Shown piece after piece: positions 7,918 to 41,071 of a stretch of DNA of 41,071 nucleotides. Both the position numbers and the translations under genes were made by a program. Source of the DNA: a virus; the IMG/VR virus record IMGVR_UViG_3300035698_023108, positions 1-41,071 of that record. One strand, 5' to 3'. The notes beneath the pieces are model-generated. The model was given only the letters and a program-made list of their open reading frames with translations, did no database searches and was not told the DNA's origin. Numbering within the stretch: the stretch's first letter is position 1; every line of letters starts with the position of its first letter.

Positions 7918-9552
7918 ATGCGCATGAAAGTCTGGACAGATAAAGATAAGGCCGTTGTCTCTTGCACTTTTTTAGAAAAAGAGATCGTGAAAGCAATAGG
8001 CGATTATAAGTTTGATAAAAAAAGTAAGACATGGTTATTCCCCCTCAAAAAACTTGTTGAGATCGTTGAGAACTTAAACATTGTATACGATGATGACACA
8101 AAAGCGATCTATAATGAGCTACGTAAAGCACGTGAAGGCCTGCATAAAAAAATCAACCTCGCAAACAAAATCAAAGACAAGAAAACAGAACCAGTCGGAC
8201 TGGATTCCTTGTATTATCACCAACGACAAGCCGTGTCTCTGGGTTTTATGTTCAATTCGTATGCGTACTTCATGGAAACAGGAACAGGGAAAACTTTAGT
8301 TGCTATTACGCTTATGCAGTACGTTGTTGAGAAGTTCAGAGAAGAACGCGGTGAAAGCGGTCGGTGTTTAGTTGTTGCACCCCTCTCTATTCTCAAAAGT
8401 GTGTGGGGAAAAGAAATAACGAAATGGTGTTCCGATCTTACCTTCACCAATCTATGGCGGAATATTGACGCGCTCAAACTAAAAGAGTCTGACGTTTATA
8501 TTATCAACTACGAACAATTCAAAAAATTAATCAAGCAATACAACCTTGCTGATTACATTGATTGCATTATTATTGATGAATCATCAAAGTTGAAGAATCC
8601 GAAATCAGCTATTACAAAAGCCTTCCTTACTTGCCGTGACATTATGTATCGCTACTGCCTGACCGGTACGCCTGCACCTAATAATCTTTTAGAATATTGG
8701 GGGCAGCTTTCCTTCGTTAACGATGAAATACTCGGTAGCAGCTTCTATAAGTATCGTGCCACGTATTTCTATTCCTCAGGGTATGGCGGGTATCAATTCT
8801 TCCCTATGAAAAACGCTAAAGACGCTATTATGGCGCAAGTATCAAAGCAAGCCTTTAGTATACGTAAGCAAGATTGCCTTGACCTGCCTGATCGTGTTTA
8901 TGAAGTGCGGTTAATCGACATGGATGATATTCAGCAAACCGCATACGACGAAATGAAAAGAGAGAACGTTCTCGAGTTTAAAGGGCATACTGTTTTGTCA
9001 GCGAATGAGCTTGCTAAAATGATGAAGCTGCGGCAAGTAACGAGTGGGTTCATTATTAATAACGCGAGTGTTCCGCTTCTAATATCTGAAAGCAAGATTA
9101 ACGCGCTTAAAGATCTTCTTGACGAAATACCAGAGGACGAGCAAATCATAATCTGGTGTCAATTCCACTTCGAAATAGAAAGGCTACATAATGAGTTCAA
9201 AAATGACTCGCTCACATTATTCGGTGCCATGGCACAGACCGATAAAGAGCAATCTATCCAAGACTTCCTCGACAAGAAAAAACGTATTCTTATCGGTCAT
9301 CCTAAAACTGGCGGGATGGGTCTTAATTTTCAGCACAATTCTTCTTATATGGTATGGTATTCACTCTCCTATTCTCAAGAAGAATACTCTCAAGCATGTG
9401 ATAGAATTTATCGCTCAGGCCAAAAAAACAAATGTACTTATTACATCCTTGCGGCCCGGAATTCCATCGATGAAATTATATACAAGGCGTTAGACAAAAA
9501 AGCAAGCTTAATGAATTATTGCCTAGAAGCACTCAAGAAAGGGGATTTATGA
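7918..9552 (+). CDS. SNF2-type DEAD/H helicase (544 aa)
   Basis: Superfamily 2 helicase. Around residues 1-60 is a HARP-like N-terminal module (SKTWLFPLKKLVEIVENLNI). Walker A is METGTGKT at about residue 119. The Walker B variant IIIDESSKLKN lies near 220, with motif III LTGTPAPNN. The C-terminal lobe has GGMGLNFQ and the arginine-finger motif CDRIYRSGQ near 495. All motors needed for ATP-dependent DNA translocation are present and the length is typical of phage SNF2 proteins. Start is ATGCGCATG after AAGAAAG. It is coupled to the next gene by ATGA overlap; likely a replication or recombination remodeller. Confidence 0.9.
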   Translation: MRMKVWTDKDKAVVSCTFLEKEIVKAIGDYKFDKKSKTWLFPLKKLVEIVENLNIVYDDDTKAIYNELRKAREGLHKKINLANKIKDKKTEPVGLDSLYYHQRQAVSLGFMFNSYAYFMETGTGKTLVAITLMQYVVEKFREERGESGRCLVVAPLSILKSVWGKEITKWCSDLTFTNLWRNIDALKLKESDVYIINYEQFKKLIKQYNLADYIDCIIIDESSKLKNPKSAITKAFLTCRDIMYRYCLTGTPAPNNLLEYWGQLSFVNDEILGSSFYKYRATYFYSSGYGGYQFFPMKNAKDAIMAQVSKQAFSIRKQDCLDLPDRVYEVRLIDMDDIQQTAYDEMKRENVLEFKGHTVLSANELAKMMKLRQVTSGFIINNASVPLLISESKINALKDLLDEIPEDEQIIIWCQFHFEIERLHNEFKNDSLTLFGAMAQTDKEQSIQDFLDKKKRILIGHPKTGGMGLNFQHNSSYMVWYSLSYSQEEYSQACDRIYRSGQKNKCTYYILAARNSIDEIIYKALDKKASLMNYCLEALKKGDL

Positions 9553-10328
9553 CAAAAGAATACGAATGGCCCGAGCAATGCTTAAAGTGCTCGCTTTATC
9601 CTTGCTCAAGCATGAACAGGAATGGAGGAAACGATTGCAAGTTTTTTAAAAAGGACACCCAAGAACGCATTGATGCTATGATGAAGACACAGAAGATGCA
9701 CAAACTCGACAGGGAATACTTTGATGATTTTCCCGCTCCGATCATGGAGCACATGCACAAACAACACTCAGTGAATATTAACGCGACAATTCCGTTCTTC
9801 GGCCCTATGATGTATTATCTGATTCGCGCCTTGCGCTGCAGGAACGTATTAGAGATTGGGCATGCGTATGGTTACACGTCATGGTATATGGCCCACGCTA
9901 TCAAGGACAACATAGCGCGCTTCCAATACACTTCAGGCCAGTACTACGGTATCGATATTGTCAAGTCAGATGAAGTAGCTGAAATGTTGAAAGATTTACC
10001 TGCTACGATTTATCAGCTCGACTCAGCAACCATGACAACATGCAGCTTTAATGACGTGAATTTTGATCTTATCTTCCAGGATGGCGCGCACGACACAGAA
10101 CACGTTGTGCATGAAATTGAGTGCTTATACCCTCTTCTTTGCGGCAATGGTAAGGGTTATCTTGTTATGCATGATTGCTATGGTCCAGCAGAGGAGGGGT
10201 ATCAGAGGATTATTAACGACCCGCGTTATCATTTTGAACATGTTCGCCTCGACGACATGGTGTATGGCTTAGCAATCTTACGCAAAATGGACGGGTATAA
10301 AGAACACAAACATTGGCAGGGGGGATAA
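9549..10328 (+). CDS. SAM-dependent methyltransferase-like protein with Cys cluster (259 aa)
   Basis: Start at 9549 overlaps the helicase stop (ATGA) and follows AAGAAAGGGG. Four Cys (11, 14, 19 and 30) form an N-terminal metal-binding cluster. The body looks like a class I methyltransferase of the Methyltransf_24 type: VLEIGHAYGYTSWYMA (motif I), YYGIDIVKSDE, DLIFQDGAHD and YLVMHDCYGP. The substrate is unknown; small-molecule, sugar or nucleotide targets are possible. Operon position beside a helicase suggests DNA metabolism or base modification, but this is inference. Confidence 0.7.
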   Translation: MTKEYEWPEQCLKCSLYPCSSMNRNGGNDCKFFKKDTQERIDAMMKTQKMHKLDREYFDDFPAPIMEHMHKQHSVNINATIPFFGPMMYYLIRALRCRNVLEIGHAYGYTSWYMAHAIKDNIARFQYTSGQYYGIDIVKSDEVAEMLKDLPATIYQLDSATMTTCSFNDVNFDLIFQDGAHDTEHVVHEIECLYPLLCGNGKGYLVMHDCYGPAEEGYQRIINDPRYHFEHVRLDDMVYGLAILRKMDGYKEHKHWQGG

Positions 10329-16158: not shown

Positions 16159-16402
16159 AGAAAAGGTTATTGAATGTCTTATTGACCAAGATTGCGGTGA
16201 TCATCAAAAAGAAGAGTTTACCTTAACTGCTCGTATACGAGACGATCTTAAGTTCGATTCCCTCGATGAAGTAGAATTAGTGATGAATATTGAGGAAGAG
16301 TTCACAATCGAGATTTCTGATGAAGAAGCAACATTATGCAACACTGTCAATGGTGTTGTTGATCTTGTGGTTAAAAAGCTTGCAAAAAAGGAGGCAAAAT
16401 GA
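16139..16402 (+). CDS. acpP: Acyl carrier protein (87 aa)
   Basis: ATG lies inside the end of the preceding gene, after AAGGAGGAGAAGC. The core DDLKFDSLDEVELVMNIEEE contains the DSL phosphopantetheine site with Ser41, followed by FTIEISDEEATLCNTVNGVV, the usual helix III and IV pattern. The size and acidic character match bacterial carrier proteins. The family carries acyl chains for fatty acid, lipid or peptide synthesis once modified by host phosphopantetheinyl transferase. No acyl-enzyme partner is visible here, so it may alter host lipid metabolism. It overlaps the next gene (ATGA). Confidence 0.85.
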   Translation: MERKLIEEKVIECLIDQDCGDHQKEEFTLTARIRDDLKFDSLDEVELVMNIEEEFTIEISDEEATLCNTVNGVVDLVVKKLAKKEAK

Positions 16403-19413: not shown

Positions 19414-22400
19414 TTATATGCCGTGAGCATGATATTTAATAGTTCCTGTTTTTTGTGTGCCGTCAAAGATATATGAGTGGATCACACACCCTGTTGTTGA
19501 GATAGAGCTTACTGTTGCTATAATTCCGTCACCGCTTGCTATATCGGCCCTAACTACAGGTATTTCGTGGAACGTTTTACTAAACGTAATAGTAACACCT
19601 GTTGCCGCTACAGATATGGTCCCCTCACCTGTTTCATCAACGTCTGGCAAGTCTGCCTTAAGAACGAACTCACTCACCGTAGGGTCTAGCGCGGTGCTGT
19701 CGCGTGTAATAGTCATACGAGCTTGGTAGTAACGCATATAGTAATCAGCAGAGACAAGGGTGTCCCATGTTGTCCATGTTGACCCATCAGTGGATGTCCT
19801 TACTTCAATATCGTAGTCAACACCGTCTTCTAAATCAGTGACATAGTCAACAAATATGCGCGCTTCAGCTATGTAACCCATATCTTTTTCGCTTGTGTAA
19901 TACACGCATGATAAGTCGCCGTCCTCATCGAAGGTTAAGTCTCCTGTTGACGTGTCGTAGTTTGAGCCTGACGGTGACTCGGTGATTGCAAAGAGGAAAT
20001 CATCATCGGTATCTGTCGCCCACGCGCCACCGTCTGAATGTTTGTTAGCGGCACCGTTAGCGAAGCTTCCTGATGATACGTCAGCGCGCCACTCGAGGTA
20101 AACGGTATCGCTCTTAGTGTAGCTCCCCTGAAGAACCACGTGGTATTTCGTTGCTGCTGACAAGGCAACGTCATCTGGAAACACGAATGAGTACCAACCA
20201 ATATCTGTGGTAATATCAGTTAGATCTATTTTAGCGGATGTTCCGTTAGCTAAAGGAGTGCCGTCAGGGTCATCACTACTATCTGTTTCTATTGTTACCC
20301 ACACATCATTTGTTGGCCCTGTGGAAGCGCTTGATGATGAAGAACTCGACATCGATGAAGAACTCGATGAAGAAGAACTCGAGCTGCTTGAGAATGAAGA
20401 AGAACTACTCGATGAAGAAGAACTCGATGAAGAGGATCCTCCCGGATAAGGAGCGTTAGGTACTGTGATAGTATCAGTCATTCCGATCACAGGGGACGCG
20501 TTAAACCAATTATCATGCCTGACTCGAAATTCATCTATATTACCTGGGAACGTCGAAGCAATAGCTCCACTATACCACCAACCGCCGACATACATATCCC
20601 CTTCGTATACGAATTCATGGGTGTCTTCAAAGTCATACGAGGTTTGAACCCCATCCATATACATGCCCCAGGTGTTCCCGTTTTTAACCAGAGCAAAATG
20701 ATGCCAGTCGGTATCTGCTATATAAGTTCTACCTGAACCTAGTCCCGGTGTACCATTGAAATAATTTGTATTCGTTCCTGTATAATTTGAAGTGACATAC
20801 ATACGAATGCCTTTACCATCATCGTGATACAATCCCCAACAATCATTCATAATGTCATACACCCCGCAAAAATAATCTTTACTGTTCGGGATTGCCGTGA
20901 ATTTAAACCAAAAGTCAAGAGTCCAGCTATCATCAACGTCACCAAATATATCCCATGAGCTTGAGTCCGGCATTCTTAGAACAGTGCCTGCTGTCAAGCC
21001 AAGCATTGATTGAGTACCAAACTTTTTCTGTGCTGTATCTCTTGCTATTGTGCCAATGAAAGTAACAGGGTGCTTCTGTGTTGACGCGTCAATAGACTCA
21101 AAGTGAAGTAGCAACTTAGTATTACCAGTCTTAGTGTGTTCTGTTGTAGGTACGGTAATGCTACTTGCACTCGTCGGATCAGCGTTGTAAGGGTTACTAT
21201 TTTCAATGCGTATTTCATCCATGTAGCCTTCCATGAATAAACTGCTTGCTTGTTCACCTATCCATAAGTCTCCAGCAAATGTGTCTGAATTATTATTCCC
21301 TTCGTCACTGTCAAACCGCACTCCATCTATATATAAACCCCAATTATTCCCTATTTTAATAACACATAAATGATGCCAGTCAGTGTCTCCTACCCCATCA
21401 GTGGCAGTTAGGTTAATAATTTCACTCCCGCCAGAAACGACACTGAAATCTATATCGTAGCTACCAGTGTCTTGCCTTAGTCTCCAATAATTGCTTGCGT
21501 CCTCATGCTGACTTATAAAAGCCGTTTGTCGACCCGCTGAGTTTTGTTTAACGAAGCACTCTATAGTCCAATTATCGGTTGTGTTCGCGGCTATATCCCA
21601 ATCAGGCGAATCAGCAATCCTTAGGCTTGCATCATAAAGATATAACGAAGAATCACCAAAGTATTTCTCAGTTGAACTGATAGCAGGTATAGGGTCATCA
21701 ATTAATACAATGTGTTGCGAGTCGCTGTAGTCAATAGCTATGCCTGAACCATCAACGCCTTCACCGTCCATGTGAAGTAGCAATTTCGTTGTGTCGTCTT
21801 GGCTGCTTGAAGACGAAGACCATGATGAGGAGCTCGATGAGGAGCTCGATGAGGATGAAGAACTCGAAGAGGACGAAGAGCTCGATGAGGAAACCCCTTG
21901 ATCTATCCTTCTTAATCTTAATTTGGCGCTTTGAACAGTAATTGCATCGCCGCCAACGGTAAAAGATTGCGATAATTTATCATACCCAGATGTTGCTTTC
22001 CTTAGAGGCCAGGCACCGTCCTCACCAGATGCATTATATATATTTGCATTATCCAGCCAGTTTGTGTGCTCGGTGTTAGTCTGCACTATGTTTTGAAATG
22101 GAATACCATAGACTGATACTGTTGCCTCCAGCGCATTCGCAGAATAATTACCCGATCGGTCAAGTGCTTTAATCCAGTACGATTGCGACACCCCTGTCTC
22201 AACGTCACGGAACTCAACTTCGTTACCAGTCTCTTGAGTAGCGACTGTTTTGCCTGCGGCCCATGATGCCCCTTTTCTGATTTCGTATTCCTGAACGTCG
22301 GTGTCTGCTACTAATGTCCAAGTTGCAAGAAGTCGATCACGGTATTTTCTCAAAAGGAAGTGGACTAAATCAGCCGGGTCGGCGTCTTTACCAGTGAGTG

Positions 22401-24210
22401 TAATTTGGCTTGACACGGTGCCGTTTGATAGAACATTGTTAACGGAATGCGTTTGGACTCTAACTCTGTATGTTTCACCGACTTCAAGGCTTTGTATAAT
22501 CCTATGTGCTGTATCACTTTGATGTGCACTGCCAACGGTAAGGTAGTCACCCCAGGTCCCGTCAAGTTTAGCAAGCTGAATAGCGTACCCGCTTAATAAT
22601 TCTTTTCTGCTTACTGGCGCGGTCCAGGCAACATTAATATGAGCCATATGTGTACCATCTTCGTTGCGCCAACCGACTTCCGTTACGGCTAGGCCAGTTA
22701 CATCGGTTACCGCAGCAAAAGGATTCGGTGGCGAACCGTAATCCCAGTCGTCAAACGTAGACGAAAATCCGTCATCATGCATAGAGGAATTATACGCCCG
22801 TAAAACGAATTGTGCTTTCCCAAAACCTGAGTCAGTCATGGACACAACTTTAAATAGCGCCGCGGTCCAAGCGGGCAGTGAGTGCGTTACAGAGACAATG
22901 TCGCCAAGCTCAATAGCCATTGCTTCTGGCGTGCTTTCGAAAGTGCACCACTCATCATTAATCTTTGCATCATATAGATTGAGCTTTGCCATGCGCAATG
23001 CTTGGCTTTGTCTACATACACCGAAAATTTCGATCTGCATTTCACGGCGACCATATGTTTCTTGGTCGATTTCATCATCAGCAATAGCCGCTCGTTTAGC
23101 GTTCTGCGTTTCGTCAGGCTTCCACCATTGCATGATCATTCTGTTTGGCGTTTCGTCTGCTTTGCCGTAACCGTAACTAAATGAGTCTTTAACAATGTTG
23201 TCTTCGGTAAACGCAAGAACTGCTGAAGACCCTGTTTTTTCTATTACTAATTTATACTTTCCTTCACTACGAATCAGTCTACCGTTAAAATTGATAAGCA
23301 TTTTTTGTACGTTATCTAAAGCAGGGTGTCGCGTATCGATAGAAAGGGACATTTCATAGCGCGCTTCGGTGCCGCCTTCACCATCAGAGACTAAGTCGTC
23401 GCATTCAACAGATACTGCGCCAAACGATGTTTCGCTTATATCAGTTGTGGCGAGGCCTCCACCGCCTAATACACGGCTTGTCAATAAGTAGTCGCGTAAA
23501 TTTGCTACCGGGTTGTTAGAAACAACTTTAGTATTTGTCGTCCAATCAGAGTTGCCAACGTTCCATGTTTGTACTTTTTTTGCTTTCAACTGACAACTCA
23601 CAACCGGGTTTCCGCTTACTTTATCGCTCGCCTGAATAGTTACCGCTAAATAGCACACGTCCCTCAGGCCTTTCACTTCATCATCGCATCGAGAGTCTGG
23701 GGTTTGCGTTGTGCTGCCGGAATAAAAAGTATACGAACAGCCTGATAGCGAGGCTATTGGTTCTTTATCGATACGTACATTCGTGACGCTTTCACATTCA
23801 CCGATAGAAAGACCTAAGAACCGTTTCACTGTTGTGCCCGGATCTGATTGCCATATTGTATTTCCGCCAACCATTAATCCATCCCCGTCGCCATTACCAT
23901 ATACGATAGGAACAACGTATTCATTTGAGCTTGTATTCGAAATCGTGCCACCAGAAGCGTAGCGTGATTGAGGCGCTGACATGCTGTCAGCTTTACGTGT
24001 TGCGCTCACAATAGACATAGCAGCTGCGGCAACAAACAGGCAAGCCTGAACAACTGCTCCCCAGGTAACAACAGTGGCCGTTCCAATAGTGAAGGCAGGA
24101 GCCGCAAGGAAACCTACAACAGCAACAAAAGTCGCAACAAACGCGAAAGCATTTTTAGCATACGCAAGAATACATGCCATTAACAGAATCGTTTTTATTT
24201 TTCTTATCAT
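19414..24210 (-). CDS. Tail-tip attachment protein, lambda J-like, with LamG and Ser-linker modules (1598 aa)
   Basis: ATG overlaps the upstream NlpC/P60-like gene (ATGA). Hydrophobic helices fill residues 1-75, as in J-type proteins. About 75-500 is the baseplate-hub-like part (EYVVPIVYGNGDGDGLMVGG, VVSCQLKAKK). Two fibronectin-III-like domains lie near 500-700. A polyserine linker (about 773-803) is followed by two LamG/concanavalin-like domains, each starting TKLLLH (about 808 and 1030). A second polyserine linker (about 1256-1293) precedes a C-terminal receptor-binding-like region ending in a fold like an H-type lectin. It would sit at the tail tip and contact the host surface. Confidence 0.85.
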   Translation of the reverse strand: MIRKIKTILLMACILAYAKNAFAFVATFVAVVGFLAAPAFTIGTATVVTWGAVVQACLFVAAAAMSIVSATRKADSMSAPQSRYASGGTISNTSSNEYVVPIVYGNGDGDGLMVGGNTIWQSDPGTTVKRFLGLSIGECESVTNVRIDKEPIASLSGCSYTFYSGSTTQTPDSRCDDEVKGLRDVCYLAVTIQASDKVSGNPVVSCQLKAKKVQTWNVGNSDWTTNTKVVSNNPVANLRDYLLTSRVLGGGGLATTDISETSFGAVSVECDDLVSDGEGGTEARYEMSLSIDTRHPALDNVQKMLINFNGRLIRSEGKYKLVIEKTGSSAVLAFTEDNIVKDSFSYGYGKADETPNRMIMQWWKPDETQNAKRAAIADDEIDQETYGRREMQIEIFGVCRQSQALRMAKLNLYDAKINDEWCTFESTPEAMAIELGDIVSVTHSLPAWTAALFKVVSMTDSGFGKAQFVLRAYNSSMHDDGFSSTFDDWDYGSPPNPFAAVTDVTGLAVTEVGWRNEDGTHMAHINVAWTAPVSRKELLSGYAIQLAKLDGTWGDYLTVGSAHQSDTAHRIIQSLEVGETYRVRVQTHSVNNVLSNGTVSSQITLTGKDADPADLVHFLLRKYRDRLLATWTLVADTDVQEYEIRKGASWAAGKTVATQETGNEVEFRDVETGVSQSYWIKALDRSGNYSANALEATVSVYGIPFQNIVQTNTEHTNWLDNANIYNASGEDGAWPLRKATSGYDKLSQSFTVGGDAITVQSAKLRLRRIDQGVSSSSSSSSSSSSSSSSSSSSSSSWSSSSSSQDDTTKLLLHMDGEGVDGSGIAIDYSDSQHIVLIDDPIPAISSTEKYFGDSSLYLYDASLRIADSPDWDIAANTTDNWTIECFVKQNSAGRQTAFISQHEDASNYWRLRQDTGSYDIDFSVVSGGSEIINLTATDGVGDTDWHHLCVIKIGNNWGLYIDGVRFDSDEGNNNSDTFAGDLWIGEQASSLFMEGYMDEIRIENSNPYNADPTSASSITVPTTEHTKTGNTKLLLHFESIDASTQKHPVTFIGTIARDTAQKKFGTQSMLGLTAGTVLRMPDSSSWDIFGDVDDSWTLDFWFKFTAIPNSKDYFCGVYDIMNDCWGLYHDDGKGIRMYVTSNYTGTNTNYFNGTPGLGSGRTYIADTDWHHFALVKNGNTWGMYMDGVQTSYDFEDTHEFVYEGDMYVGGWWYSGAIASTFPGNIDEFRVRHDNWFNASPVIGMTDTITVPNAPYPGGSSSSSSSSSSSSSSFSSSSSSSSSSSSSMSSSSSSSASTGPTNDVWVTIETDSSDDPDGTPLANGTSAKIDLTDITTDIGWYSFVFPDDVALSAATKYHVVLQGSYTKSDTVYLEWRADVSSGSFANGAANKHSDGGAWATDTDDDFLFAITESPSGSNYDTSTGDLTFDEDGDLSCVYYTSEKDMGYIAEARIFVDYVTDLEDGVDYDIEVRTSTDGSTWTTWDTLVSADYYMRYYQARMTITRDSTALDPTVSEFVLKADLPDVDETGEGTISVAATGVTITFSKTFHEIPVVRADIASGDGIIATVSSISTTGCVIHSYIFDGTQKTGTIKYHAHGI

Positions 24211-25499: not shown

Positions 25500-26138
25500 T
25501 TAACCTGAGCTTGAACTTGAGCTTGAGCTCGAAGACGAGCTACTCGATGAATTCCCATTAGGCGGGACAAAAGAACTCCACCTAACTTCTGTGAATTTCA
25601 ATCCTGCGTGCAATAACTGATACGCAACAAGCTCTCTTGTAAGCGTGTCCTCTTTAAACCTAACGCGGTAATAAAAATCATACGTAACAAGTATTGCTGC
25701 CGCGGCTGGCGCACTATCAAAGGTAATGTATGACTTTTCAGTAACGAAGTTATTGCTTAACGTGTAATTCGTTTCCGCGGATCCGCCAACAGTACAAGAA
25801 TTGTTTGAGGCTATCTCAACAGGGAAGTGATGGAGCAAGAACTGAGTCTCAGCCGTGTCGCCGTTGCCAAGGCTCTCAGCGTCAGCGTCCATTTCTGTTT
25901 CTATTTTTAAAAGGAAACTATCGTAACTTCCTTTCCTCGCAATAAAAAAATCCCAAATCGTGTCCATATCTGTGTTTGATAAAAACTTCACATTAACAAC
26001 GTAATCACGTAAACCATCATCCCAAAGGCTCGCACGGTATTCAAGCCCGCTTTCCGTTTCAGTTTTCGATGTATTAAATTGTATTGATTCTTTAATCCCG
26101 AACTCAGGGGACAATGTTAATATATGCTCATTTCCCAT
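25500..26138 (-). CDS. Minor tail protein, DUF2460/lambda M-like, with polyserine tail (212 aa)
   Basis: GNEHILTLSPEFGIKESIQF, then WDDGLRDYVVNVKFLSNTDM, then YYRVRFKEDTLTRELVAYQL match the tail-tip connector family (DUF2460-like) in its normal position after the tape measure. The last residues are N followed by 15 consecutive Ser and a Gly, not expected in the family. Codons alternate between AGY and TCN, so the tail is not a homopolymer error. It overlaps the tape-measure stop by one base. Confidence 0.7.
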   Translation of the reverse strand: MGNEHILTLSPEFGIKESIQFNTSKTETESGLEYRASLWDDGLRDYVVNVKFLSNTDMDTIWDFFIARKGSYDSFLLKIETEMDADAESLGNGDTAETQFLLHHFPVEIASNNSCTVGGSAETNYTLSNNFVTEKSYITFDSAPAAAAILVTYDFYYRVRFKEDTLTRELVAYQLLHAGLKFTEVRWSSFVPPNGNSSSSSSSSSSSSSSSG

Positions 26139-28222
26139 TACGTCGCCTTTGTTTTCATTGTTGACCTTATCGATTCATTATTATTGATACCTGACTCAAC
26201 AGCGTCTTGAAAAATATCGCCGTTTTCTTCTAAGCGATCTCTAAAGCTTTGGACATCGATAGCATTAATGTTGTAATAATTTGTCACTGATCCACCACCG
26301 CCCTGCCCACGATTTAACTTATTCAGATTGTCGACTCCCATAGCGCTCATTGCGGGACGGTTTAGAACGCCTTCCCCTTCAAGTAGGGTTGCATTGACTT
26401 CATCAACTCTTCCTCCACTGTGGTACTTCTTTCCTTTAACAGGGCCGCCTAAATGGCTAATAGTATATGAAGACCCTGGTGCGTAGCCGGCGATAGATGC
26501 GTTTGCTCCTGCTATCGAGGGAGAAGCTGGGCTAAACATACCAGCAGCCATTGATACTCCACTAAGGATTGTTCCAAACAAACTATTCTTCGATCCCGTT
26601 GACTGCCCTAAAGCGTTTTGGAATCCTGCAGCCACTAGGGCTTCTGTCGCAACGATCTCGAGTAGTTTTTTTATAATAATGTCACCCATGGAAATGAAAA
26701 CATCTTTCATTTTTACTGTTTCGCCATGGATAACACGGAAGAATCCGTCGACGAAAGTATTACGCATGGTAGTTACTGTCCTCTGAGACAATTGTTCAAG
26801 GGCATCGTATTGATCTGCTACTTCTTCCGTGTTGTTTTCGCTTAACCCCGATAATTCTTTCTTGAGTTGCTCGTTAGCAATATGAATATCCTTCACTGTT
26901 TGTATGATATTATTTTTAAAATCCTCTACACTTTCCCCTGAGAGCGCTTTACTCGCCGAAACGCCTACCTTTTCAAGGTCTTCCGTCAACGCCGCTAATC
27001 GAAGCCGCGCGGCATCAAGAGTGCTCTGTAGCTCTTCTCCCATTGCACCGCCGCCTTCACCATCGAGCTCTTGAAGCTTATTCATGTAACCGGTCATTGC
27101 CCCGGTGGCGTCGCCCCACTTTGCTCCGAGTCGCGTAATCCAATTATCGACAGAAGCTTTTTTCTCTAATTTTGTTGTCAGTAGCACAAAAGCATTTAAT
27201 GCCATTTCAATAGAGATAGCAACGGTTTGGAAGCCCGCTGACATTGTCGAAACTACTCGGTGGATCACGGTCCCTGTCGCGATTAGCATGATCCACGTAT
27301 CATTAAGAGCTTCTGATTCTTCACGAGCGCTGTCTAGCGAAGTCTCCCACTCGTTTAATTTCGTTGCTAATACTGTTAAGGCAGCGCGTAAAGGGATTGA
27401 CTCAGTAAAAAACTCTCCAATCGCTTCCGTTAAATCGCCCCACGCTTCTGATGTTTTCTTTAAGGTACTCGTGTAAGTCATCCCAAGCATTTTTGCATTA
27501 CCCTCAACAGCGGCACGGACGTCTGTAAGGATGTCTCCGAAGGCTTTTGTTTTCATCGTAGTGTCTGATAAAGAGATACCATAAGTACGCAACGTCGTCA
27601 CACGTCCACCCATAGCCGTTAAGAAGCGGCGAGTAACATTCGTAACAGTTTCTTGCTCTTTGCCACTTGCTTTCAAGAATGCCGTCCAGTCAACCATCAA
27701 TGGAATTGCTTCTTTAATCTGGTCATTCGTAAATTTTCTGCTTGTCATTAATGCTTGAGACTTAATGATTTCATTATCTGATATACCGGAAAGATTTTGT
27801 AGCTCACCAGCGTATTTAATCATTGCCTTAGTCTGTGCTTCAGTGATTTTTTTAGTAGACATTGCGGCAGCAGCCAACGCTCTTTCAGCGTTTTCTTGAT
27901 CCATAGCTGCTTTAGTCACTGAAGTGATTGCTCTCTTGAGAGGATTGTATACAAAGTAGTATAACAGTAATATATTACGTAATTGCCCGATGCTACGCCG
28001 AAGCCCTTCAGTCGCTACTCGCATACGACCAAATTCTTGCGTGGTTTTTTTAGCAGCGGTCGTGGCTTTACCCATAGCCGCTGTCGTCACAAGGCCTGTC
28101 TTGGTCATCTCACCGTTAAATTGTTGAATAGCTCTCTTCTGTGCATTGAGAGCAGCGAGAAGTTTCTTCGTTGACTTATCCGCAAATGATAATTCTACGA
28201 TGTATTCTTGTTTCTTACCCAT
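26138..28222 (-). CDS. Tape measure protein (694 aa)
   Basis: Long helical protein between the tail chaperones and the tail-tip genes. N-terminal coiled coil (LLAALNAQKRAIQQFNGEMT), hydrophobic helix LRNILLLYYFVYNPLKRAIT, and a central Ala-rich region with membrane-like helices (WIMLIATGTVIHRVVSTM). The C-terminus has SYTISHLGGPVKGKKYHSGG and EVNATLLEGEGVLNRPAMSA, typical of tape-measure ends. It sets tail length, about 0.1 micrometre if roughly 1.5 Angstrom per residue applies. Confidence 0.85.
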   Translation of the reverse strand: MGKKQEYIVELSFADKSTKKLLAALNAQKRAIQQFNGEMTKTGLVTTAAMGKATTAAKKTTQEFGRMRVATEGLRRSIGQLRNILLLYYFVYNPLKRAITSVTKAAMDQENAERALAAAAMSTKKITEAQTKAMIKYAGELQNLSGISDNEIIKSQALMTSRKFTNDQIKEAIPLMVDWTAFLKASGKEQETVTNVTRRFLTAMGGRVTTLRTYGISLSDTTMKTKAFGDILTDVRAAVEGNAKMLGMTYTSTLKKTSEAWGDLTEAIGEFFTESIPLRAALTVLATKLNEWETSLDSAREESEALNDTWIMLIATGTVIHRVVSTMSAGFQTVAISIEMALNAFVLLTTKLEKKASVDNWITRLGAKWGDATGAMTGYMNKLQELDGEGGGAMGEELQSTLDAARLRLAALTEDLEKVGVSASKALSGESVEDFKNNIIQTVKDIHIANEQLKKELSGLSENNTEEVADQYDALEQLSQRTVTTMRNTFVDGFFRVIHGETVKMKDVFISMGDIIIKKLLEIVATEALVAAGFQNALGQSTGSKNSLFGTILSGVSMAAGMFSPASPSIAGANASIAGYAPGSSYTISHLGGPVKGKKYHSGGRVDEVNATLLEGEGVLNRPAMSAMGVDNLNKLNRGQGGGGSVTNYYNINAIDVQSFRDRLEENGDIFQDAVESGINNNESIRSTMKTKAT

Positions 28223-28249
28223 AATAAGCCCCTATCGTACAATTGATAA

Positions 28250-28558
28250 TTACTTCTTATCTTGCGCGTCGATCTCAGCGCCTTCTAAAACATTGAATGC
28301 TTCAAGCACTTTAATCGGTTGTTGCGCAATCGATCCAGGAAGCGGTAAGAACCCATTCTTGAACCAGCTGTAATACTGAATATAGCCATTCGTGTTTGCC
28401 GTTATTAGTTTCATAGGACAATAATCAATAACCTTACCGTCGTATTGAAACCCTAACTTGCCTCCACCGTCACACCCCCGGTACAACCTTAAAGCTTCTT
28501 TTTCTCTACAGTCTTGGCAGCTAAGACCTAAATAAGATAGCTGTACTGCCAGTATCAG
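28250..28558 (-). CDS. Tail chaperone C-terminal extension, made by -1 frameshift (GT-like part)
   Basis: This frame has no ATG; its only upstream start is a TTG at 28597 inside the other frame. It continues the preceding gene after a -1 shift at A AAA AAC (28558-28564), which would give a 226-residue fusion. The extension has a Cys cluster (LSCQDCREK, YRGCDGG, DYCPMK), as in GT-type chaperones. It helps load the tape measure. Position before the tape measure is canonical. Confidence 0.75.
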   Translation of the reverse strand: MILAVQLSYLGLSCQDCREKEALRLYRGCDGGGKLGFQYDGKVIDYCPMKLITANTNGYIQYYSWFKNGFLPLPGSIAQQPIKVLEAFNVLEGAEIDAQDKK

Positions 28559-28929
28559 TTTTTTGTTTCCGCTTCCGTTAGATGATTCATACCCCAAACA
28601 ACGCTTGCTAATTCTGTTATAACGGTAATTGGGATAACCAGCAACGACTCATCGGCGACTACTTCGCGATCTTTGTCCATGAATCTAACAGTTTCCTTAA
28701 CAAGCTCATGGCTTCCAAAGTTACGGACACTGTGCAAGCCATACTTGACGGCTTGAAAGTTCATTGAAGCAATCCCGGCTTTTTCAACTTCACCCTCTGC
28801 TGAATTTGCCATTAAAAGTTCAGATTGCTCAACCGAGTCTAACGAATTGATCATCCAAATAGTCGGGTTTACTGTGTCTTTTTTTAAAGTGTACTCTTTT
28901 GTTTGCCCTAAAGCGATTGGGTCAATCAT
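28555..28929 (-). CDS. Tail assembly chaperone, lambda G-like (124 aa)
   Basis: ATG follows AGGAGGAAATA. The sequence has the beta-rich start KEYTLKKDTVNPTIWMINSL, helices and an ending EAETKN, then TGA. It lies between the morphogenesis gene and the tape measure. The slippery heptamer A AAA AAC overlaps its last two sense codons, directly before the stop, so a fraction of ribosomes should read into the extension. Confidence 0.7.
   Translation of the reverse strand: MIDPIALGQTKEYTLKKDTVNPTIWMINSLDSVEQSELLMANSAEGEVEKAGIASMNFQAVKYGLHSVRNFGSHELVKETVRFMDKDREVVADESLLVIPITVITELASVVWGMNHLTEAETKN
28558..28564 (-). promoter_or_regulatory. Programmed -1 frameshift site A AAA AAC
   Basis: In the gene's frame the codons read ACA AAA AAC TGA. 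The heptamer matches X XXY YYZ, and after slipping one base back the next codon is CTG in the extension frame. The stop sits immediately 3' of the heptamer. Confidence 0.85.
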
Positions 28930-28938
28930 TATTTCCTC

Positions 28939-29403
28939 CTAGTTCCTTTTCTTACCTTGTTGAACAAACCATCTTTCAAACCTGGCATTGATCCAGGTAA
29001 TGAGCTTTGGGTTTAAGCCTATAAATGGTCGCTTTGTTTTCTGAGGGCCAACGCCCTCGTTGTGATGATATTGTGCTACGTCTGTACGGCTTGGATGACC
29101 TACATTCCTAACTCCAATACCGTAATGATTCTTACCGAGTTTCTTCGGTCGAATACCGCCATGCATCTGTCCGGTACCGAACAAAGGAGTCGTAGGGCGC
29201 GGCATCCCGGCCCTACGTTTCTTATCGATAGTTGATTTTTTAAGTTTGATTTGTGTAGAAAAATCAGGCCTGCGTCGTTGACGTATATTGATTTGAGCCT
29301 GGACGGCGATCTTCTTAGCTGCTTGCGCTAAAGGAACGCTTGCATCAAGAAAACTGGGCAGTGTAAACTTCTTAATTTTTATCTTCGCCAATACCTGCAT
29401 CAC
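28939..29403 (-). CDS. Virion morphogenesis protein, HK97 gp10/Mu G-like (154 aa)
   Basis: Basic N-terminal half with KSTIDKKRRAGMPRPTTPLF and FGTGQMHGGIRPK, followed by HHNEGVGPQKTKRPFIGLNP, the signature region of phage virion-morphogenesis (tail completion) proteins: a His-rich G segment then RPFxGL. It sits between the major tail protein and the chaperones. Probably finishes or joins the tail. Confidence 0.7.
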   Translation of the reverse strand: MMQVLAKIKIKKFTLPSFLDASVPLAQAAKKIAVQAQINIRQRRRPDFSTQIKLKKSTIDKKRRAGMPRPTTPLFGTGQMHGGIRPKKLGKNHYGIGVRNVGHPSRTDVAQYHHNEGVGPQKTKRPFIGLNPKLITWINARFERWFVQQGKKRN

Positions 29404-29410
29404 TCACCTC

Positions 29411-30403
29411 TTATGTAGAGCTGCTTGAGCTTGAGCTAGACGAACTCGAACTTGAACTCGAAGCAGCCATTAGTATTGCTATTTCATCGTTCCCTGCATC
29501 TGCTGATTTACATATTTCACATGTAGCGTTATTAATAGCCAAGCCAGATCGATCGCCAGGGGTAACGCTTGTGTACCTAACTGCTGGCATACTAAACTGA
29601 AGCATTGCGTCAGAGTTATTCATTCTTATAGTAACCGCCGCCGTGGCGCTTGATTGAAGCTTCCCAAGAAAATCGTGGTCAGCCATCAATACCATTTCTG
29701 GGTCAAACGTCATGACAGGGTCGCGCCCAACGATCTTAGCGTAATCAATGCCGCTTGCATCTGAAGGCAACGGAGAAATAACAATCTCATTCTGCATATC
29801 AATTTCAAGATTATCAATCGTTAACACATCCCCGAGAATCTCTACCGTTGCGCCCATAAACATAAAGGGAACAATGCTCGGATATGTTGGTGTCAACAGT
29901 GCCGTATCACTATGCGATGAATATTTGCCAACAAAGTCAAACTCACACATAACTGGCTCGCCGACTTTGAATTGAAACTTTACGTTCCCGGCGGCTCCTG
30001 CCATAACATGTCTAAACCCATCGAGGTAATACCCAAGAGTGGCTGTTTCGAACCCTGAAGATTTTGTTGCGTACGCGTTTGACGTCCCACCTAACAGTGT
30101 TTCTGCGAATCCACAAGCATTAAGCAATGGTGATAACGGAATAGCAACACCTTTGCCTGCTGACGCTGGAGCCATTAACTCAACCTTAAAGCTGGCTGAC
30201 ATTTTCTTCGCGCCAGGTAAACTACTAAAGCGAGACATGTGTTTCACGACCGGGTTGCGTTTAAATTGTTCATCATCTGATGAAAAACTTGGGTCATACG
30301 CCAACATCGTGGCCTCTGAGGCTGTTAAAGTTTCAGCCGTACCGCTTGTACTTTCTGCTTTCGCAGCTACTTGAGCAATTCGTTTTACTAAAGAATCAAC
30401 CAT
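29411..30403 (-). CDS. Major tail protein with polyserine C-terminus (330 aa)
   Basis: Beta-rich protein with the order of a tail-tube subunit: KRIAQVAAKAESTSGTAETL near the N-terminus, KKMSASFKVELMAPAS, CGFAETLLGGTS, GNVKFQFKVGEPVMCEFDFV, then VTIRMNNSDAMLQFSMPAV. It lies between the terminator candidate and the chaperones. The end is AA followed by 15 Ser and a Thr. A tail of this kind, repeated on every tube subunit, would cover the whole tail surface. Confidence 0.75.
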   Translation of the reverse strand: MVDSLVKRIAQVAAKAESTSGTAETLTASEATMLAYDPSFSSDDEQFKRNPVVKHMSRFSSLPGAKKMSASFKVELMAPASAGKGVAIPLSPLLNACGFAETLLGGTSNAYATKSSGFETATLGYYLDGFRHVMAGAAGNVKFQFKVGEPVMCEFDFVGKYSSHSDTALLTPTYPSIVPFMFMGATVEILGDVLTIDNLEIDMQNEIVISPLPSDASGIDYAKIVGRDPVMTFDPEMVLMADHDFLGKLQSSATAAVTIRMNNSDAMLQFSMPAVRYTSVTPGDRSGLAINNATCEICKSADAGNDEIAILMAASSSSSSSSSSSSSSST

Positions 30404-30415
30404 TTTGTTCCTCCC

Positions 30416-30868
30416 TTAAAAAATTCTTCGTTCTTGTACATTTATAGTTATCTCTGCTTTATGGCAAAGTACATGCGCAAACATCACATTAGTAATATCT
30501 GCTTCTATAGGAAATTCGATTGTTGTCGCCGTGGCGCCGAGCTGTATATCTTCAATAAACGCCTGTATAACGTCCTCTACGATGTCATTAAATGTTTTTT
30601 CAGACGCTAAGGAGTCATTTAAACGATAAAAACCACGTACCATAAAGGTGTGGACAGAGTCTTCTTGGCCCCCATGCCCGCCGTGCTGGTCTTTTGAAAC
30701 ATGCGGGCGCTCAATATCCCATGTGTGAATAATTTCGTTCTCCTTAAATAAGCTTTTGTAAGAATCAAAATCAGCACTATACCGTTTATACTCATAAACA
30801 GTATTAGCCAGCGATGTAGCTGCCTTGATCACTGTAGCAATTTGTGTTCTTATTAGTGCAAGTGACAT
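30416..30868 (-). CDS. Tail terminator-type protein candidate (150 aa)
   Basis: The frame opens at 30943, but the start at 30868 is preferred: AAGAAAGGG lies just before it and the upstream codons cross the tRNA-like element. The protein has SLALIRTQIATVIKAATSLA, a beta segment, HTFMVRGFYRLNDSLASEKT and NDIVEDVIQAFIED, plus a beta-rich C-terminus. Size and place before the major tail protein fit the tail terminator, although no motif is decisive. Confidence 0.5.
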   Translation of the reverse strand: MSLALIRTQIATVIKAATSLANTVYEYKRYSADFDSYKSLFKENEIIHTWDIERPHVSKDQHGGHGGQEDSVHTFMVRGFYRLNDSLASEKTFNDIVEDVIQAFIEDIQLGATATTIEFPIEADITNVMFAHVLCHKAEITINVQERRIF

Positions 30869-30889
30869 ATTTCCCTTTCTTATGGAGCC

Positions 30890-30963
30890 AGTGGGATTTG
30901 CACCCACGTCCAGCGCTTCCTCTCGGGTTAGTACTGTCGACATCTAGGACGGCCCCGTATGTT
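30890..30963 (-). tRNA. tRNA-like element (possible degenerate tRNA)
   Basis: On the minus strand, GGGGCCG at the 5' end pairs with TGGCTCC at the 3' end, allowing two G-T pairs, as a 7-bp acceptor followed by A. GTGGG-TGCAAAT-CCCAC forms a perfect T-arm whose loop differs by one base from the usual TTCAAAT. The length between acceptor and T-arm (42) fits a tRNA. The D-arm and anticodon arm do not fold convincingly, so no anticodon is called. Confidence 0.35.
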
Positions 30964-31041
30964 ATCAGATAGAGATAGAGATTGGGTGAGGTAAAATAAT
31001 GTACGTCAGTATCTCTGCCTTTACTACTTTGCTTTTGGGGG

Positions 31042-31773
31042 TTATCTTTGTCGACGCGGATGGGTCAAATAATCATCGCCCCATGGATAAATCACGTCGA
31101 ATTCCTTTTGCACGTTGCCGCTTGCTCCTGTGCCACGCTTACTTCCACCTGTCGCATTCGCATCGATACCCATTAAACCGTTATATCGACCGCGTTGCTC
31201 CTGTGCTAAAGAAATGTAAAGATCTGATTTCCGTTGATAATCAACAACATCAGCTTCGATAGTGCTGTCAACGGATTGTGCATATTTGGCCGCAAGAGCC
31301 CAAAAACAAAGGGAAGCTGCTAATGCTAGCACAGCTTCAGTATCGCTTTCATACACTGTATTGGATGAAGCGCTCAATGTATGCGGAATAGCATACGTAA
31401 ACCTAGCTTTTTTCGCACTTTCTGGTACGAATGCAAGAAAACGAAGAACGACTACGCGCACCGATGATGATAAAGTATCAATAAATCCCCAGTCAGCATC
31501 CTCGATGTAAGGAGGCACTTGATATTCGCCTGATGGATATTCTATTTTTCCCATTACGTAACTAAAGTTATCTTGCCAATCATTTGGTAAGTCAAAATCG
31601 TATGCGTCACCGTCGCCAGTAATCTCATGAACCATTTTCTGGGGCTTATCGCTTGAATAAAGAAGTACAGCCTGATCGACAAAGCGTTCTTTATCGTCAG
31701 GCTGTAATTCCTGGCCATGATCTTGCAACAATGCTTCTAGTCGACGTAAAAAATCTTCCTTCACTATAGGCAT
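31042..31773 (-). CDS. Head-tail connector-type protein (243 aa)
   Basis: Helical N-terminus (KEDFLRRLEALLQDHGQELQ), then a beta domain (KMVHEITGDGDAYDFDLPND, WQDNFSYVMGKIEYP), then a helical Ala-rich segment (EAVLALAASLCFWALAAKYA). It follows the head proteins and precedes the tail genes, as a connector does. Its C-terminus is basic and poorly conserved. Role inferred from position and domain layout. Confidence 0.55.
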   Translation of the reverse strand: MPIVKEDFLRRLEALLQDHGQELQPDDKERFVDQAVLLYSSDKPQKMVHEITGDGDAYDFDLPNDWQDNFSYVMGKIEYPSGEYQVPPYIEDADWGFIDTLSSSVRVVVLRFLAFVPESAKKARFTYAIPHTLSASSNTVYESDTEAVLALAASLCFWALAAKYAQSVDSTIEADVVDYQRKSDLYISLAQEQRGRYNGLMGIDANATGGSKRGTGASGNVQKEFDVIYPWGDDYLTHPRRQR

Positions 31774-31782
31774 ATCATTCCT

Positions 31783-32082
31783 TTACGTGCTTGTACTACT
31801 TGAACTACTTGAACTACTTGAGCTACTTGAGCTAAAGCTTGAGCTTGAGCTTGAACTTGAACTGCTTGAGCTTGAACTGCTTGAGCTTGAATGTTGAACA
31901 TTTACATTACCGCTGTCTTCTTTATACTTAGCAGCACCGAAAACGTTAACCTGGCGTCTCGCATTTAATATTAAATTACAATCTTCTTCTTTAACATTAT
32001 ACGCGCCGCACTTTATATTCTCGCAAACAATTCCATCGGCCGCGTTGTTCTTAAAAGGACATCTGTAACCTGGTACCCCCAC
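31783..32082 (-). CDS. Small Cys-containing protein with long polyserine tail (99 aa)
   Basis: The first 65 residues form a small domain with four Cys (YRCPFKNN, IVCENIKCGAYN, EEDCNLILNARRQ), likely a zinc- or disulfide-stabilised fold. The rest is a polyserine tail of about 30 residues broken by one Phe and ending STST. No family was recognised. It lies between the surface-protein pair and the connector, so it is probably a virion accessory protein. Confidence 0.6.
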   Translation of the reverse strand: MGVPGYRCPFKNNAADGIVCENIKCGAYNVKEEDCNLILNARRQVNVFGAAKYKEDSGNVNVQHSSSSSSSSSSSSSSSSSSFSSSSSSSSSSSSSTST

Positions 32083-32111
32083 GACAATCTCCTTTGTTGA
32101 ATGTTATACTC

Positions 32112-32534
32112 TTAGCCACTTGAGCTAGAGCTACTTGAGCTGCTTGAGCTGCTTGAACTTGAGCTTGAGCTAGAACCAGCGCCAGCAACTGAAACCGACA
32201 ATGCATACCAATAAGGTGTTGACTCGTTACTACACCAGAACTCAACCATTTCATACTTACCAATACTAACCGAGTCATAACTCGCACCACCACCACCAAA
32301 ACCGGCGGCAACGTATACGTAACCCTGGCTAGTTGTTGCGACATACACACTTGCTCCAGCTAAGGCTGCACTAGCTGCAGGTAAGGTTAACTTTACATTC
32401 GCTGATAACGAAATAAATGAATAACCATCGATTAAGATATTGTTTTGTGTTAACGCGTAATCGGCTGCCTTCGTAAGCTTAGTGCCACGTTTCTGCGCGA
32501 TCATATACTCAAAAGCCGTTTTCTTTCCCATCAT
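32112..32534 (-). CDS. Paralogous surface/decoration protein with polyserine tail (140 aa)
   Basis: Clearly related to the upstream 116-residue protein: shared IAQKRGT/IAEKRGT, NILxDGY, LTLP, VAAGFGGGG and SYDSVSIGKY/SFDSVTIGAY. It lies just after the capsid genes, so a capsid-decorating or vertex protein is likely. Unlike its paralogue it ends in AG, 19 Ser and Gly. ATG follows AAGGAGGAAATG in the duplicated leader. Confidence 0.6.
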   Translation of the reverse strand: MMGKKTAFEYMIAQKRGTKLTKAADYALTQNNILIDGYSFISLSANVKLTLPAASAALAGASVYVATTSQGYVYVAAGFGGGGASYDSVSIGKYEMVEFWCSNESTPYWYALSVSVAGAGSSSSSSSSSSSSSSSSSSSG

Positions 32535-32601: not shown

Positions 32602-32952
32602 TTAAGCAGTTACTGACTCGCCACATGCGTGCCAGTTAGAACCATCACACCATACTTTTATGGTGTTGTAAGCGCCTATGGTTACTGAATCAAAACTCGT
32701 GCCACCACCGCCAAACCCAGCAGCTACAGTGACAGCTGAGGAACCGTTATTTCCAGCGATAATAAGAACTATTCCTTTAAGAAACGACGAAGCAACGGGA
32801 AGGGTTAACGTATAGGCACCGTTAATTTTTATAAAACCATAACCATCTTGCAGAATGTTCGCAGCAGTGAGTGTAGTATTCGCAGCAATCGTGTAGGCTG
32901 TACCTCGCTTTTCAGCAATATGGTATTTAAAGCGGGACATCTTTGACATCAT
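32602..32952 (-). CDS. Small surface/decoration protein, untailed paralogue (116 aa)
   Basis: ATG follows AAGGAGGAAATG. Beta-rich: YHIAEKRGTAYTIAANTTLT, GFIKINGAYTLTLPVAS, AVTVAAGFGGGGTSFDSVTI and VWCDGSNWHACGESV. The next gene is a diverged copy with the same leader but a polyserine tail. It comes directly after the capsid polyprotein, typical for a decoration protein. The gene order and paralogy suggest duplication. Confidence 0.6.
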   Translation of the reverse strand: MMSKMSRFKYHIAEKRGTAYTIAANTTLTAANILQDGYGFIKINGAYTLTLPVASSFLKGIVLIIAGNNGSSAVTVAAGFGGGGTSFDSVTIGAYNTIKVWCDGSNWHACGESVTA

Positions 32953-40036: not shown

Positions 40037-40344
40037 TAGTATGCCTTTCGTTGTTTGACTGTAAATTCAATTACACCTGTTCTTTTATCAGCGGCGGTTT
40101 CATATTCAGCGGTTAAGTTTATCTGAAAAGATCCTTCCTCTGTTGTCGTGTAAGCATATTGTATCTGATTACTCACGATTGTTGCCGCCGTACTTGCCTG
40201 CACAGCCGTTGTTGTATCGCCTCTCTTCCATATCTCAGCAAGAGCTGATCCTGCATCAGGTTCTTGTTCAACACCGTCTACTTTAAAGACGCCCCTGAAT
40301 GTAATTTTATCACCAATGTAGTATTGATGCTTTCTATTAGGCAT
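40036..40344 (-). CDS. Small beta-sandwich protein, Ig-like (102 aa)
   Basis: Beta-rich: HQYYIGDKITFRGVFKVDGV, SALAEIWKRGDT, TIVSNQIQYAYTTTEEGSFQ, INLTAEYETA and GVIEFTVKQ, the strand spacing of an Ig-like or BppU-type domain. Such modules are often on virion surface proteins. It lies between the Ser-rich protein and the terminase genes and overlaps the former by eight bases. Confidence 0.6.
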   Translation of the reverse strand: MPNRKHQYYIGDKITFRGVFKVDGVEQEPDAGSALAEIWKRGDTTTAVQASTAATIVSNQIQYAYTTTEEGSFQINLTAEYETAADKRTGVIEFTVKQRKAY

Positions 40345-41071
40345 TTGATTCTCCCTTCATTTTGAACTCCTTTGTTTGATTCTCAAAATCTAAGCTTGAT
40401 GTCTGATCTTTCAATTTAAAGTCTTGCGTCTTATCTTCAAACCCAAGGCCATGTGTTTGATTTTTAAACTTGTAATCCGTTGTCTCTTCTTCAAACGAAG
40501 CTATAACACCCATGGGGTATGTTGAGCGGCTCGAGGAGCTACTGCTTGACATTGACGAAGATGAACTACTACTACTCGATGATGAGCTCGACGAGCTACT
40601 TGAGAAAGAGCTACTGCTACTGCTTGAGCTACTCGAGAAAGAGCTGCTGCTACTACTTGAGCTGCTTGAGAAAGAACTACTACTACTGCTTGAGCTACTC
40701 GAAAAAGAACTGCTACTGCTCGACGATGAACTACTGCTTGAGCTGCTTGAGAAAGAACTGCTGCTACTGCTTGAGCTGCTCGAAAAGGAGCTGCTGCTGC
40801 TCGACGACGAGCTACTACTCGACGACGAAAAACTTGAACTACTACTCGATGAGCTGCTGCTCGACGAAAAACTTGAGCTACTGCTTGAAGAACTTGAAGA
40901 GCTTGAGCTGCTCGAAGAAGAATGTGTAAAATCAACTCCCCATAAATCTGTCTTTAAGCTAATAACAACTGTTGTGGCGCTACTGCTCGAAGATGAACTA
41001 CTGCTGCTTGAGAAAGAACTCGATGACGAGCTACTGCTCGAAAAAGAACTGCTACTGCTCGAAGAACTCGA
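40337..41071 (-). CDS. Ser/Phe-repeat surface protein, N-terminus beyond window (at least 244 aa)
   Basis: The frame is open from the right edge to the TAA at 40337; its start lies outside. From the edge it reads runs of Ser with single Phe every 9-13 residues, then a 19-residue island (ATTVVISLKTDLWGVDFTH), then about 125 more residues of Ser with Phe. The C-terminal 60 residues hold an 18-residue repeat, TTDYKFKNQTHGLGFEDK followed by TQDFKLKDQTSSLDFENQ. Codons mix TCN and AGY. It is likely an extended virion surface or fibre protein; no family was recognised. Confidence 0.65.
   Translation of the reverse strand, partial: SSSSSSSSSFSSSSSSSSSFSSSSSSSSSSSATTVVISLKTDLWGVDFTHSSSSSSSSSSSSSSSSSFSSSSSSSSSSSSFSSSSSSSSSSSSSSFSSSSSSSSSSFSSSSSSSSSSSSSSSFSSSSSSSSSSFSSSSSSSSSSFSSSSSSSSSSFSSSSSSSSSSSSSSSSSMSSSSSSSRSTYPMGVIASFEEETTDYKFKNQTHGLGFEDKTQDFKLKDQTSSLDFENQTKEFKMKGESNA

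What the first reader, a model, noticed from the sequence alone, without database searches (positions are those of the whole stretch)
25500..32534. Polyserine C-terminal tails on four separate late proteins
The DUF2460-like tail protein (15 Ser), major tail protein (15 Ser), a 99-residue protein (about 30 Ser with one Phe) and a decoration-type paralogue (19 Ser) all end in polyserine just before the stop. Their folds are unrelated, so the tails were added repeatedly. Codons alternate AGY and TCN, which cannot interconvert by one mutation, so the tracts probably arose by spread of hexamer units (AGCTCN) and are kept as protein. Such tails would coat tail and head. Possible roles, all inferred: adhesion, hydration, glycosylation or phosphorylation by the host, or attachment of another protein.
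Basis: partly seen in the sequence, partly recalled or inferred. Interest (0 to 1): 0.78.

Follow-up and report, generated by a model that had tools for sequence, protein, structure and literature searches.

The report
Serine-tailed, probably sugar-coated phage virions
This phage hangs long strings of the amino acid serine on its tail, head and fibre proteins, and its relatives carry sugar-attaching enzymes beside the longest of these strings, so the strings are probably anchor points for a sugar coat on the virus particle.

Summary
Four late proteins end in 15-31 serines. The tail-fibre protein also has two internal polyserine linkers framing two lectin-like LamG domains. A further gene at the contig edge is almost all serine and runs off the contig. 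In 21 further species-level relatives the same genes carry tails wherever closed (tail tube 43/43 loci, distal tail 24/24, 99-aa protein 38/38, decoration 37/37). Ten other late genes essentially never do. Near-identical strains differ only by in-frame indels and synonymous changes (17:1), so serine is kept as protein. The hexamer idea is only partly right: long tracts have a 9-base period.

New evidence points to function. In all seven relatives whose upstream region could be read, a glycan cassette (GT9-like glycosyltransferases, sugar epimerase or aminotransferase, methyltransferases) sits directly upstream of the giant polyserine gene. Contigs retrieved only by these GT9-like enzymes carry polyserine in 26 of 27 clusters, against 0 of 27 in a control, including phages unrelated to the window. 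Best explanation: polyserine is the acceptor for phage-encoded O-glycosylation, giving glycan-coated tails and tethers for lectin domains. Glycosylation itself is inferred; the window contig stops before the place where the cassette should lie.

The parts
25506..25550 (-). S15 C-terminal tail of the distal tail protein (DUF2460, gene 25500-26138)
   Evidence: Pfam DUF2460 6.9e-24; profile match to GTA distal tail protein Rcc01695, 6tba, 1.7e-5; tail in 24/24 closed orthologues
29417..29461 (-). S15 C-terminal tail of the major tail tube protein (gene 29411-30403)
   Evidence: Pfam Phage_tube_2 1.5e-14; predicted fold matches the P74-26, SH-Ab15497 and T5 tail tubes; tail in 43/43 closed orthologues
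31795..31890 (-). S18-F-S13 tail of the 99-aa protein with a Cys-bearing N-terminus (gene 31783-32082)
   Evidence: tail in 38/38 closed orthologues
32118..32174 (-). S19 tail of the second decoration-type paralogue (gene 32112-32534); its neighbour 32602-32952 has none
   Evidence: 37/37 closed orthologues tailed; best fold match a capsid spike of phage Pa223, weak (E 2.4e-3)
21802..21891 (-). S23-W-S6 internal linker before the first LamG domain of the fibre/host-specificity protein (gene 19414-24210)
   Evidence: Laminin_G_3 domains 3.4e-22; central tail fibre J PHROG
20329..20436 (-). S14-F-S13-M-S7 internal linker after the second LamG domain of the same protein
40337..41071 (-). giant (S9-17 F)n polyserine gene running off the contig end, with a short C-terminal domain of F-x-x-x-T-x-x-F-like repeats
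   Evidence: full length in L003:604-1503; orthologues contain 182-852 Ser
32602..32952 (-). untailed decoration paralogue (internal negative control)
9519..10328 (+). Methyltransf_24 gene, 52% identical to a methyltransferase of the glycan cassette of relative G216

Best explanation
The polyserine tracts are acceptor scaffolds for phage-encoded O-glycosylation of the virion. As free C-terminal tails they put a flexible glycan coat on the tail tube, distal tail ring and head decoration protein. As internal linkers they tether lectin-like domains (LamG, F5/8C) and fibre domains. Shown: the tracts, their gene-by-gene conservation, purifying selection for Ser, and their statistical and operon-like linkage to a GT9-like glycosyltransferase cassette. 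Inferred: that the enzymes act on these serines, which sugar is attached, and the benefit (adhesion, hydration, shielding).
For: Same four genes tailed in every closed orthologue of 22 species-level clusters; ten other late genes essentially never (clusters). 17 synonymous to 1 non-synonymous change in tracts of near-identical strains against 22-28% synonymous expected, with indels of 9, 18 and 21 codons. Directly upstream of the giant polyserine gene, seven of seven assessable relatives carry a glycan cassette: Glyco_transf_9, LicD, cytidylyltransferase, NAD epimerase, DegT aminotransferase (1e-69), sugar C-methyltransferase, Methyltransf_24. Contigs fetched only by the GT9-like enzymes: 26/27 clusters with polyserine, all 63 tracts on the enzyme's strand, against 0/27 control clusters; 18/19 even where no homology to window genes was found. 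Conversely 7/18 polyserine contigs found by DNA pattern carry the enzyme, against 2/21 controls. The enzyme family has an invariant G-D motif and four invariant cysteines in 18/18; TibC, which glycosylates Ser, has a four-Cys finger (PMC4358343). Glycans are reported at the C-termini of tail tube and capsid subunits of mycobacteriophages (PMC12619734 citing Freeman 2023).
Against: The window contig ends inside the giant gene, so no cassette glycosyltransferase is seen in this phage itself. Family assignment of the enzymes is weak by sequence: one Pfam GT9 hit above cut-off and only E 0.04-0.3 to solved GT9 structures. Plain PF00535/PF00534 searches found nothing above cut-off. The cassette could instead modify host surface glycans. 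Large phages carry more enzymes of every kind, which confounds. The four-Cys spacing differs from TibC.
Confidence: 0.66

Rival explanations
1. Polyserine is an unmodified, flexible hydrophilic linker or brush, like the polyserine linkers of secreted carbohydrases; the nearby sugar genes serve host-surface modification.
For: Polyserine joins LamG, F5/8C and beta-helix-type domains in the window clade and in unrelated phages. In Saccharophagus and Teredinibacter polyserine linkers join catalytic and carbohydrate-binding modules, function unknown (PMC2386152, PMC2699552).
Against: Does not explain why serine rather than Gly/Pro/Thr is kept so strictly in free tails without any domain beyond them, nor the tight two-way linkage to a glycosyltransferase family.
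Confidence: 0.2
2. Tracts are modified by the host (glycosylation or phosphorylation by host enzymes).
For: The window contig shows no glycosyltransferase; host enzymes could act on any exposed Ser run.
Against: The cassette is phage-encoded in all seven assessable relatives. In the MAG that holds relative L019, and in the sampled genomes of its family, the only polyserine is on the phage contig; the host link is by binning only.
Confidence: 0.08
3. Selfish or neutral expansion of short repeats with no protein-level role.
For: Unit periodicity (9, 6, 15 bases) and length changes by whole units between strains; interrupting residues are shared among tracts of one phage (overlap 0.43 against 0.24, 0/500 permutations).
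Against: Confinement to the same few surface genes, absence from neighbours, synonymous-only change, all six Ser codons mixed.
Confidence: 0.04
4. Assembly artefact.
For: Contigs of another assembly break inside the decoration tail (L003 ends and L008 starts there).
Against: Same tracts in separate contigs and 22 species clusters; mixed codons give unique sequence.
Confidence: 0.01

Closest known systems
Virion glycosylation of mycobacteriophages (glycans at C-termini of tail tube and capsid subunits; Freeman 2023, cited in PMC12619734)
   Same: phage-encoded glycosyltransferases; C-terminal position on tail tube and head proteins
   Different: here the acceptor would be a nearly pure serine homopolymer, also in fibres and distal tail, with GT9-like enzymes; glycan not shown
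Serine-rich repeat adhesins Fap1/GspB/PsrP with linked glycosyltransferases (PMC6973325)
   Same: very long Ser-rich stalk, dedicated glycosyltransferase genes in the same cluster, binding domain held out by the stalk
   Different: virion not cell wall; no accessory Sec system expected; tracts are purer serine with F/I/L/R interruptions; enzymes GT9-like
Autotransporter heptosyltransferases TibC/AAH (PMC4358343)
   Same: protein O-glycosylation on serine (not threonine); heptosyltransferase-type enzyme with a four-Cys metal finger
   Different: TibC not found by profile search against PDB sequences; Cys spacing differs; acceptor would be polyserine
Polyserine linkers of Saccharophagus, Cellvibrio and Teredinibacter carbohydrases (PMC2386152, PMC2699552)
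   Same: near-pure Ser linkers between domains including carbohydrate-binding ones
   Different: those average 39-44 residues and link enzymes; here up to about 900 residues, on virions, and also as free C-terminal tails
Ig-like decoration domains of tail tubes and capsids (T5/DT57C, PMC10713586)
   Same: surface extension of tail tube and decoration proteins
   Different: no folded domain; serine tail predicted with low confidence

Membership tests
Virion glycosylation system (phage-encoded) | glycosyltransferase genes in the phage | tested here: met
   met in seven relatives; not seen in the truncated window
Virion glycosylation system (phage-encoded) | sugar covalently attached to virion proteins | not testable with these tools
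   needs mass spectrometry
GT9 (heptosyltransferase) family, cassette enzymes | profile match to Glyco_transf_9 above cut-off | tested here: inconclusive
   met for one of the proteins scanned (L194:16034-18562, 27.4 bits against 22); others only weak GT9 similarity
Autotransporter heptosyltransferase (BAHT) | sequence homology to TibC | tested here: not met
   no TibC chain at E<=1 with profiles A6 and A7
Autotransporter heptosyltransferase (BAHT) | four-Cys metal finger | tested here: inconclusive
   four invariant Cys in 18/18 but spacing differs from C339/342/358/370
Serine-rich repeat adhesins | accessory Sec (SecA2/SecY2) export | not tested
   virion proteins need no export; not searched
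Serine-rich repeat adhesins | glycosyltransferases linked to Ser-rich protein gene | tested here: met
Polyserine linkers (PSL) | Ser-rich linker between folded domains, one of them carbohydrate-binding | tested here: met
   LamG domains in the window, F5_F8_type_C_2 in L007/L012/L037 decoration proteins (L037 just below cut-off)
Siphophage tail tube protein (Phage_tube_2 / T5 pb6 type) | profile and fold match | tested here: met
   (model mean pLDDT 63.5)
Distal tail protein (DUF2460) | Pfam match and homology to GTA Dit | tested here: met

The most novel reading that the evidence does not exclude
A widespread, undescribed virion glycosylation system: unrelated uncultivated phages independently append homopolymeric serine to tail, head and fibre proteins as acceptors for a dedicated family of four-cysteine GT9-like glycosyltransferases, making mucin-like coats and long glycosylated stalks (up to about 900 residues) for lectin domains.
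Probability: 0.58. Interest if true: 0.9.

Novelty: new variant of a known kind. Interest (0 to 1): 0.83.

Why it matters
If true, polyserine is a sequence signature by which glycan-coated phages can be recognised directly in metagenomes, and it names the enzymes likely to build the coat. It links three separately known themes (virion glycosylation, serine-rich glycoprotein adhesins, polyserine linkers) and gives a simple two-component test system: a serine tail plus a GT9-like enzyme. It would also suggest how phages of uncultured bacteria bind surfaces or hide from recognition.

Tried and rejected
Pure DNA-repeat expansion without protein role: rejected by gene confinement and synonymous-only change. 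Universal hexamer origin: rejected as general rule. Imitation of host polyserine proteins: in the only MAG linked to a relative, polyserine lay only on the phage contig; the phylum-wide pattern search was too permissive to count and gave one clear polyserine match among those read. Phage tRNA-Ser supply: no tRNAs in the window or 13 loci. Generic glycosyltransferase families PF00535/PF00534: nothing above cut-off, which nearly made me drop glycosylation before reading the flanks of a full-length relative. Homology of pattern-found polyserine phages to the window through the tail tube profile: none of 21. Within-phage DNA homogenisation by shared codon strings: only a small excess. Literature: no held paper found that describes polyserine phage proteins; a 2019 survey put the longest phage low-complexity region at 115 residues (PMC6821194).

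Full report
OBSERVATION.

IDENTITY OF THE PROTEINS. The tube protein matches Pfam Phage_tube_2 and its predicted fold matches T5, P74-26 and SH-Ab15497 tail tubes (moderate model confidence). In DT57C/T5 the tube protein carries a protruding Ig-like decoration domain (PMC10713586); here the end of the protein is serine, with low model confidence. The DUF2460 protein is related to the distal tail protein of the R. capsulatus gene transfer agent (profile E 1.7e-5 to 6tba). The decoration protein lies just downstream of the capsid gene; its best fold match is a capsid spike (weak).

CONSERVATION. Relatives were fetched by terminase, tail tube and a tail-less tube profile: 22 species-level clusters, window included. 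Closed orthologues carry polyserine in 43/43 tube, 24/24 distal tail, 38/38 99-aa and 37/37 decoration genes, with 10-187 Ser. Capsid, portal, both terminase subunits, tape measure, BR0599, NlpC and three small genes never do (apart from one S5 run in a portal); one more (the 31042-31773 type) does so only in L021/L022, at its N-terminus. The first decoration paralogue lacks a tail in 31 loci; in the other seven the best match is a tailed paralogue. More distant cultured relatives S-CBS1 and JP1 have tube genes that stop within about ten residues of the aligned core, so the tail is an addition.

SELECTION AND ORIGIN. All six Ser codons are mixed in nearly every phage. Between near-identical strains, tract codons changed 17 times synonymously and once not (at an interrupting Lys), where 22-28% synonymous is expected; by my arithmetic the binomial probability is about 5e-9 if changes are independent. 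Indels are 9, 18 and 21 codons. Long tracts show a 3-codon period, other phages 2- or 5-codon periods; the window's four tails mostly alternate AGY/TCN. Interrupting residues are shared among genes of one phage, for example Cys-Arg in L011 and Ile in L006.

LINKER OR TAIL. In several relatives the decoration protein continues after the serine into a domain matched by F5_F8_type_C_2. In unrelated phages found by DNA pattern, polyserine adjoins LamG or F5/8C domains. So the same element serves as tether and as free tail.

GLYCAN CASSETTE. The full-length relative G216 has, directly upstream of its 852-Ser gene, a run of same-strand genes including LicD, cytidylyltransferase, NAD-sugar epimerase, several Methyltransf_24 proteins and GT9-like enzymes. 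Homologous or analogous cassettes stand at the same place in G217, G218 (with DegT aminotransferase, dehydratase-type epimerase and sugar C-methyltransferase), G220, L004, L006 and the MAG contig G001:C5, where the last cassette gene overlaps the polyserine gene. That is seven of seven assessable phages. The window ends inside the giant gene, so its cassette, if present, is off the contig; one cassette-type methyltransferase homologue lies at 9519-10328.

ASSOCIATION TESTS. Scanning viral contigs with GT9-like profiles A6 and A7 gave 60 loci in 27 clusters; 26 clusters hold polyserine, all 63 tracts on the enzyme's strand. A control set fetched with the S-CBS1 portal protein gave 0 of 27 clusters (Fisher 2.9e-14). 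Eighteen of 19 clusters without detectable homology to window genes also hold polyserine; in one such phage (L221/L222) a tail-tube-like protein itself ends in polyserine (the tube reading is mine, by sequence likeness). In the reverse direction 7 of 18 pattern-found polyserine contigs carry the enzyme (six with E below 1e-50) against 2 of 21 controls, one of them strong and large.

ENZYME. Across 18 homologues a G-D pair and four cysteines are invariant. From general knowledge the G-D fits the catalytic aspartate of GT9. TibC, a Ser-specific protein heptosyltransferase, has a four-Cys iron finger (PMC4358343), but it was not found by profile search and its spacing differs; I claim a similar way of working, not membership.

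CONCLUSION. Tails and their conservation are shown. Phage-encoded glycosylation of polyserine is the best-supported mechanism (0.66), resting on genomic linkage and analogy with mycobacteriophage virion glycosylation (PMC12619734) and serine-rich repeat adhesins (PMC6973325). No chemistry has been shown.

Noticed in passing
L021/L022 and L006 (orthologues of window 31042-31773): Polyserine also appears in or next to this otherwise untailed gene: an N-terminal S15 in L021/L022, and an S14 followed at once by a stop that splits the frame in L006.
   Followed up: partly
L005, L007, L012, L037, L042, L044 decoration proteins: After the polyserine comes a domain resembling F5/8C (galactose-binding-like); L057, with a different first domain, has a similar polyserine-F5/8C-polyserine module.
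   Followed up: partly
window 40337-40540 and L004-L007, L080, L255, L257: Short C-terminal repeats follow the giant polyserine: F-K-D-x-T-x-x-Y-K-F in this clade, W-x-D-R repeats in unrelated phages.
   Followed up: no
L213, L240, L243, L249, L250, L255, L257, L225: A recurrent small protein of unrelated GT9-bearing phages ends in ...GDVV-polyserine-ESIG or QAVV, another apparently dedicated tailed protein family.
   Followed up: no
window 16139-16402 (+): Acyl carrier protein-like gene (PP-binding) in the early region.
   Followed up: no
L019, contig CAJVXN010000005.1 in MAG DRR093005_bin.42: A 67-kb relative was binned with a ~1.9 Mb uncultured bacterium; the contig is phage-sized, so the host link is weak.
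   Followed up: partly
fibre protein 19414-24210 and L011, L017, L018, L019: Polyserine is inserted inside what looks like a single beta-sandwich domain; in the window the insertion also holds two LamG domains.
   Followed up: partly
all polyserine tracts of the window clade: Identical neighbouring Ser codons are about half as frequent as in shuffles, perhaps against slippage or single-tRNA depletion.
   Followed up: partly
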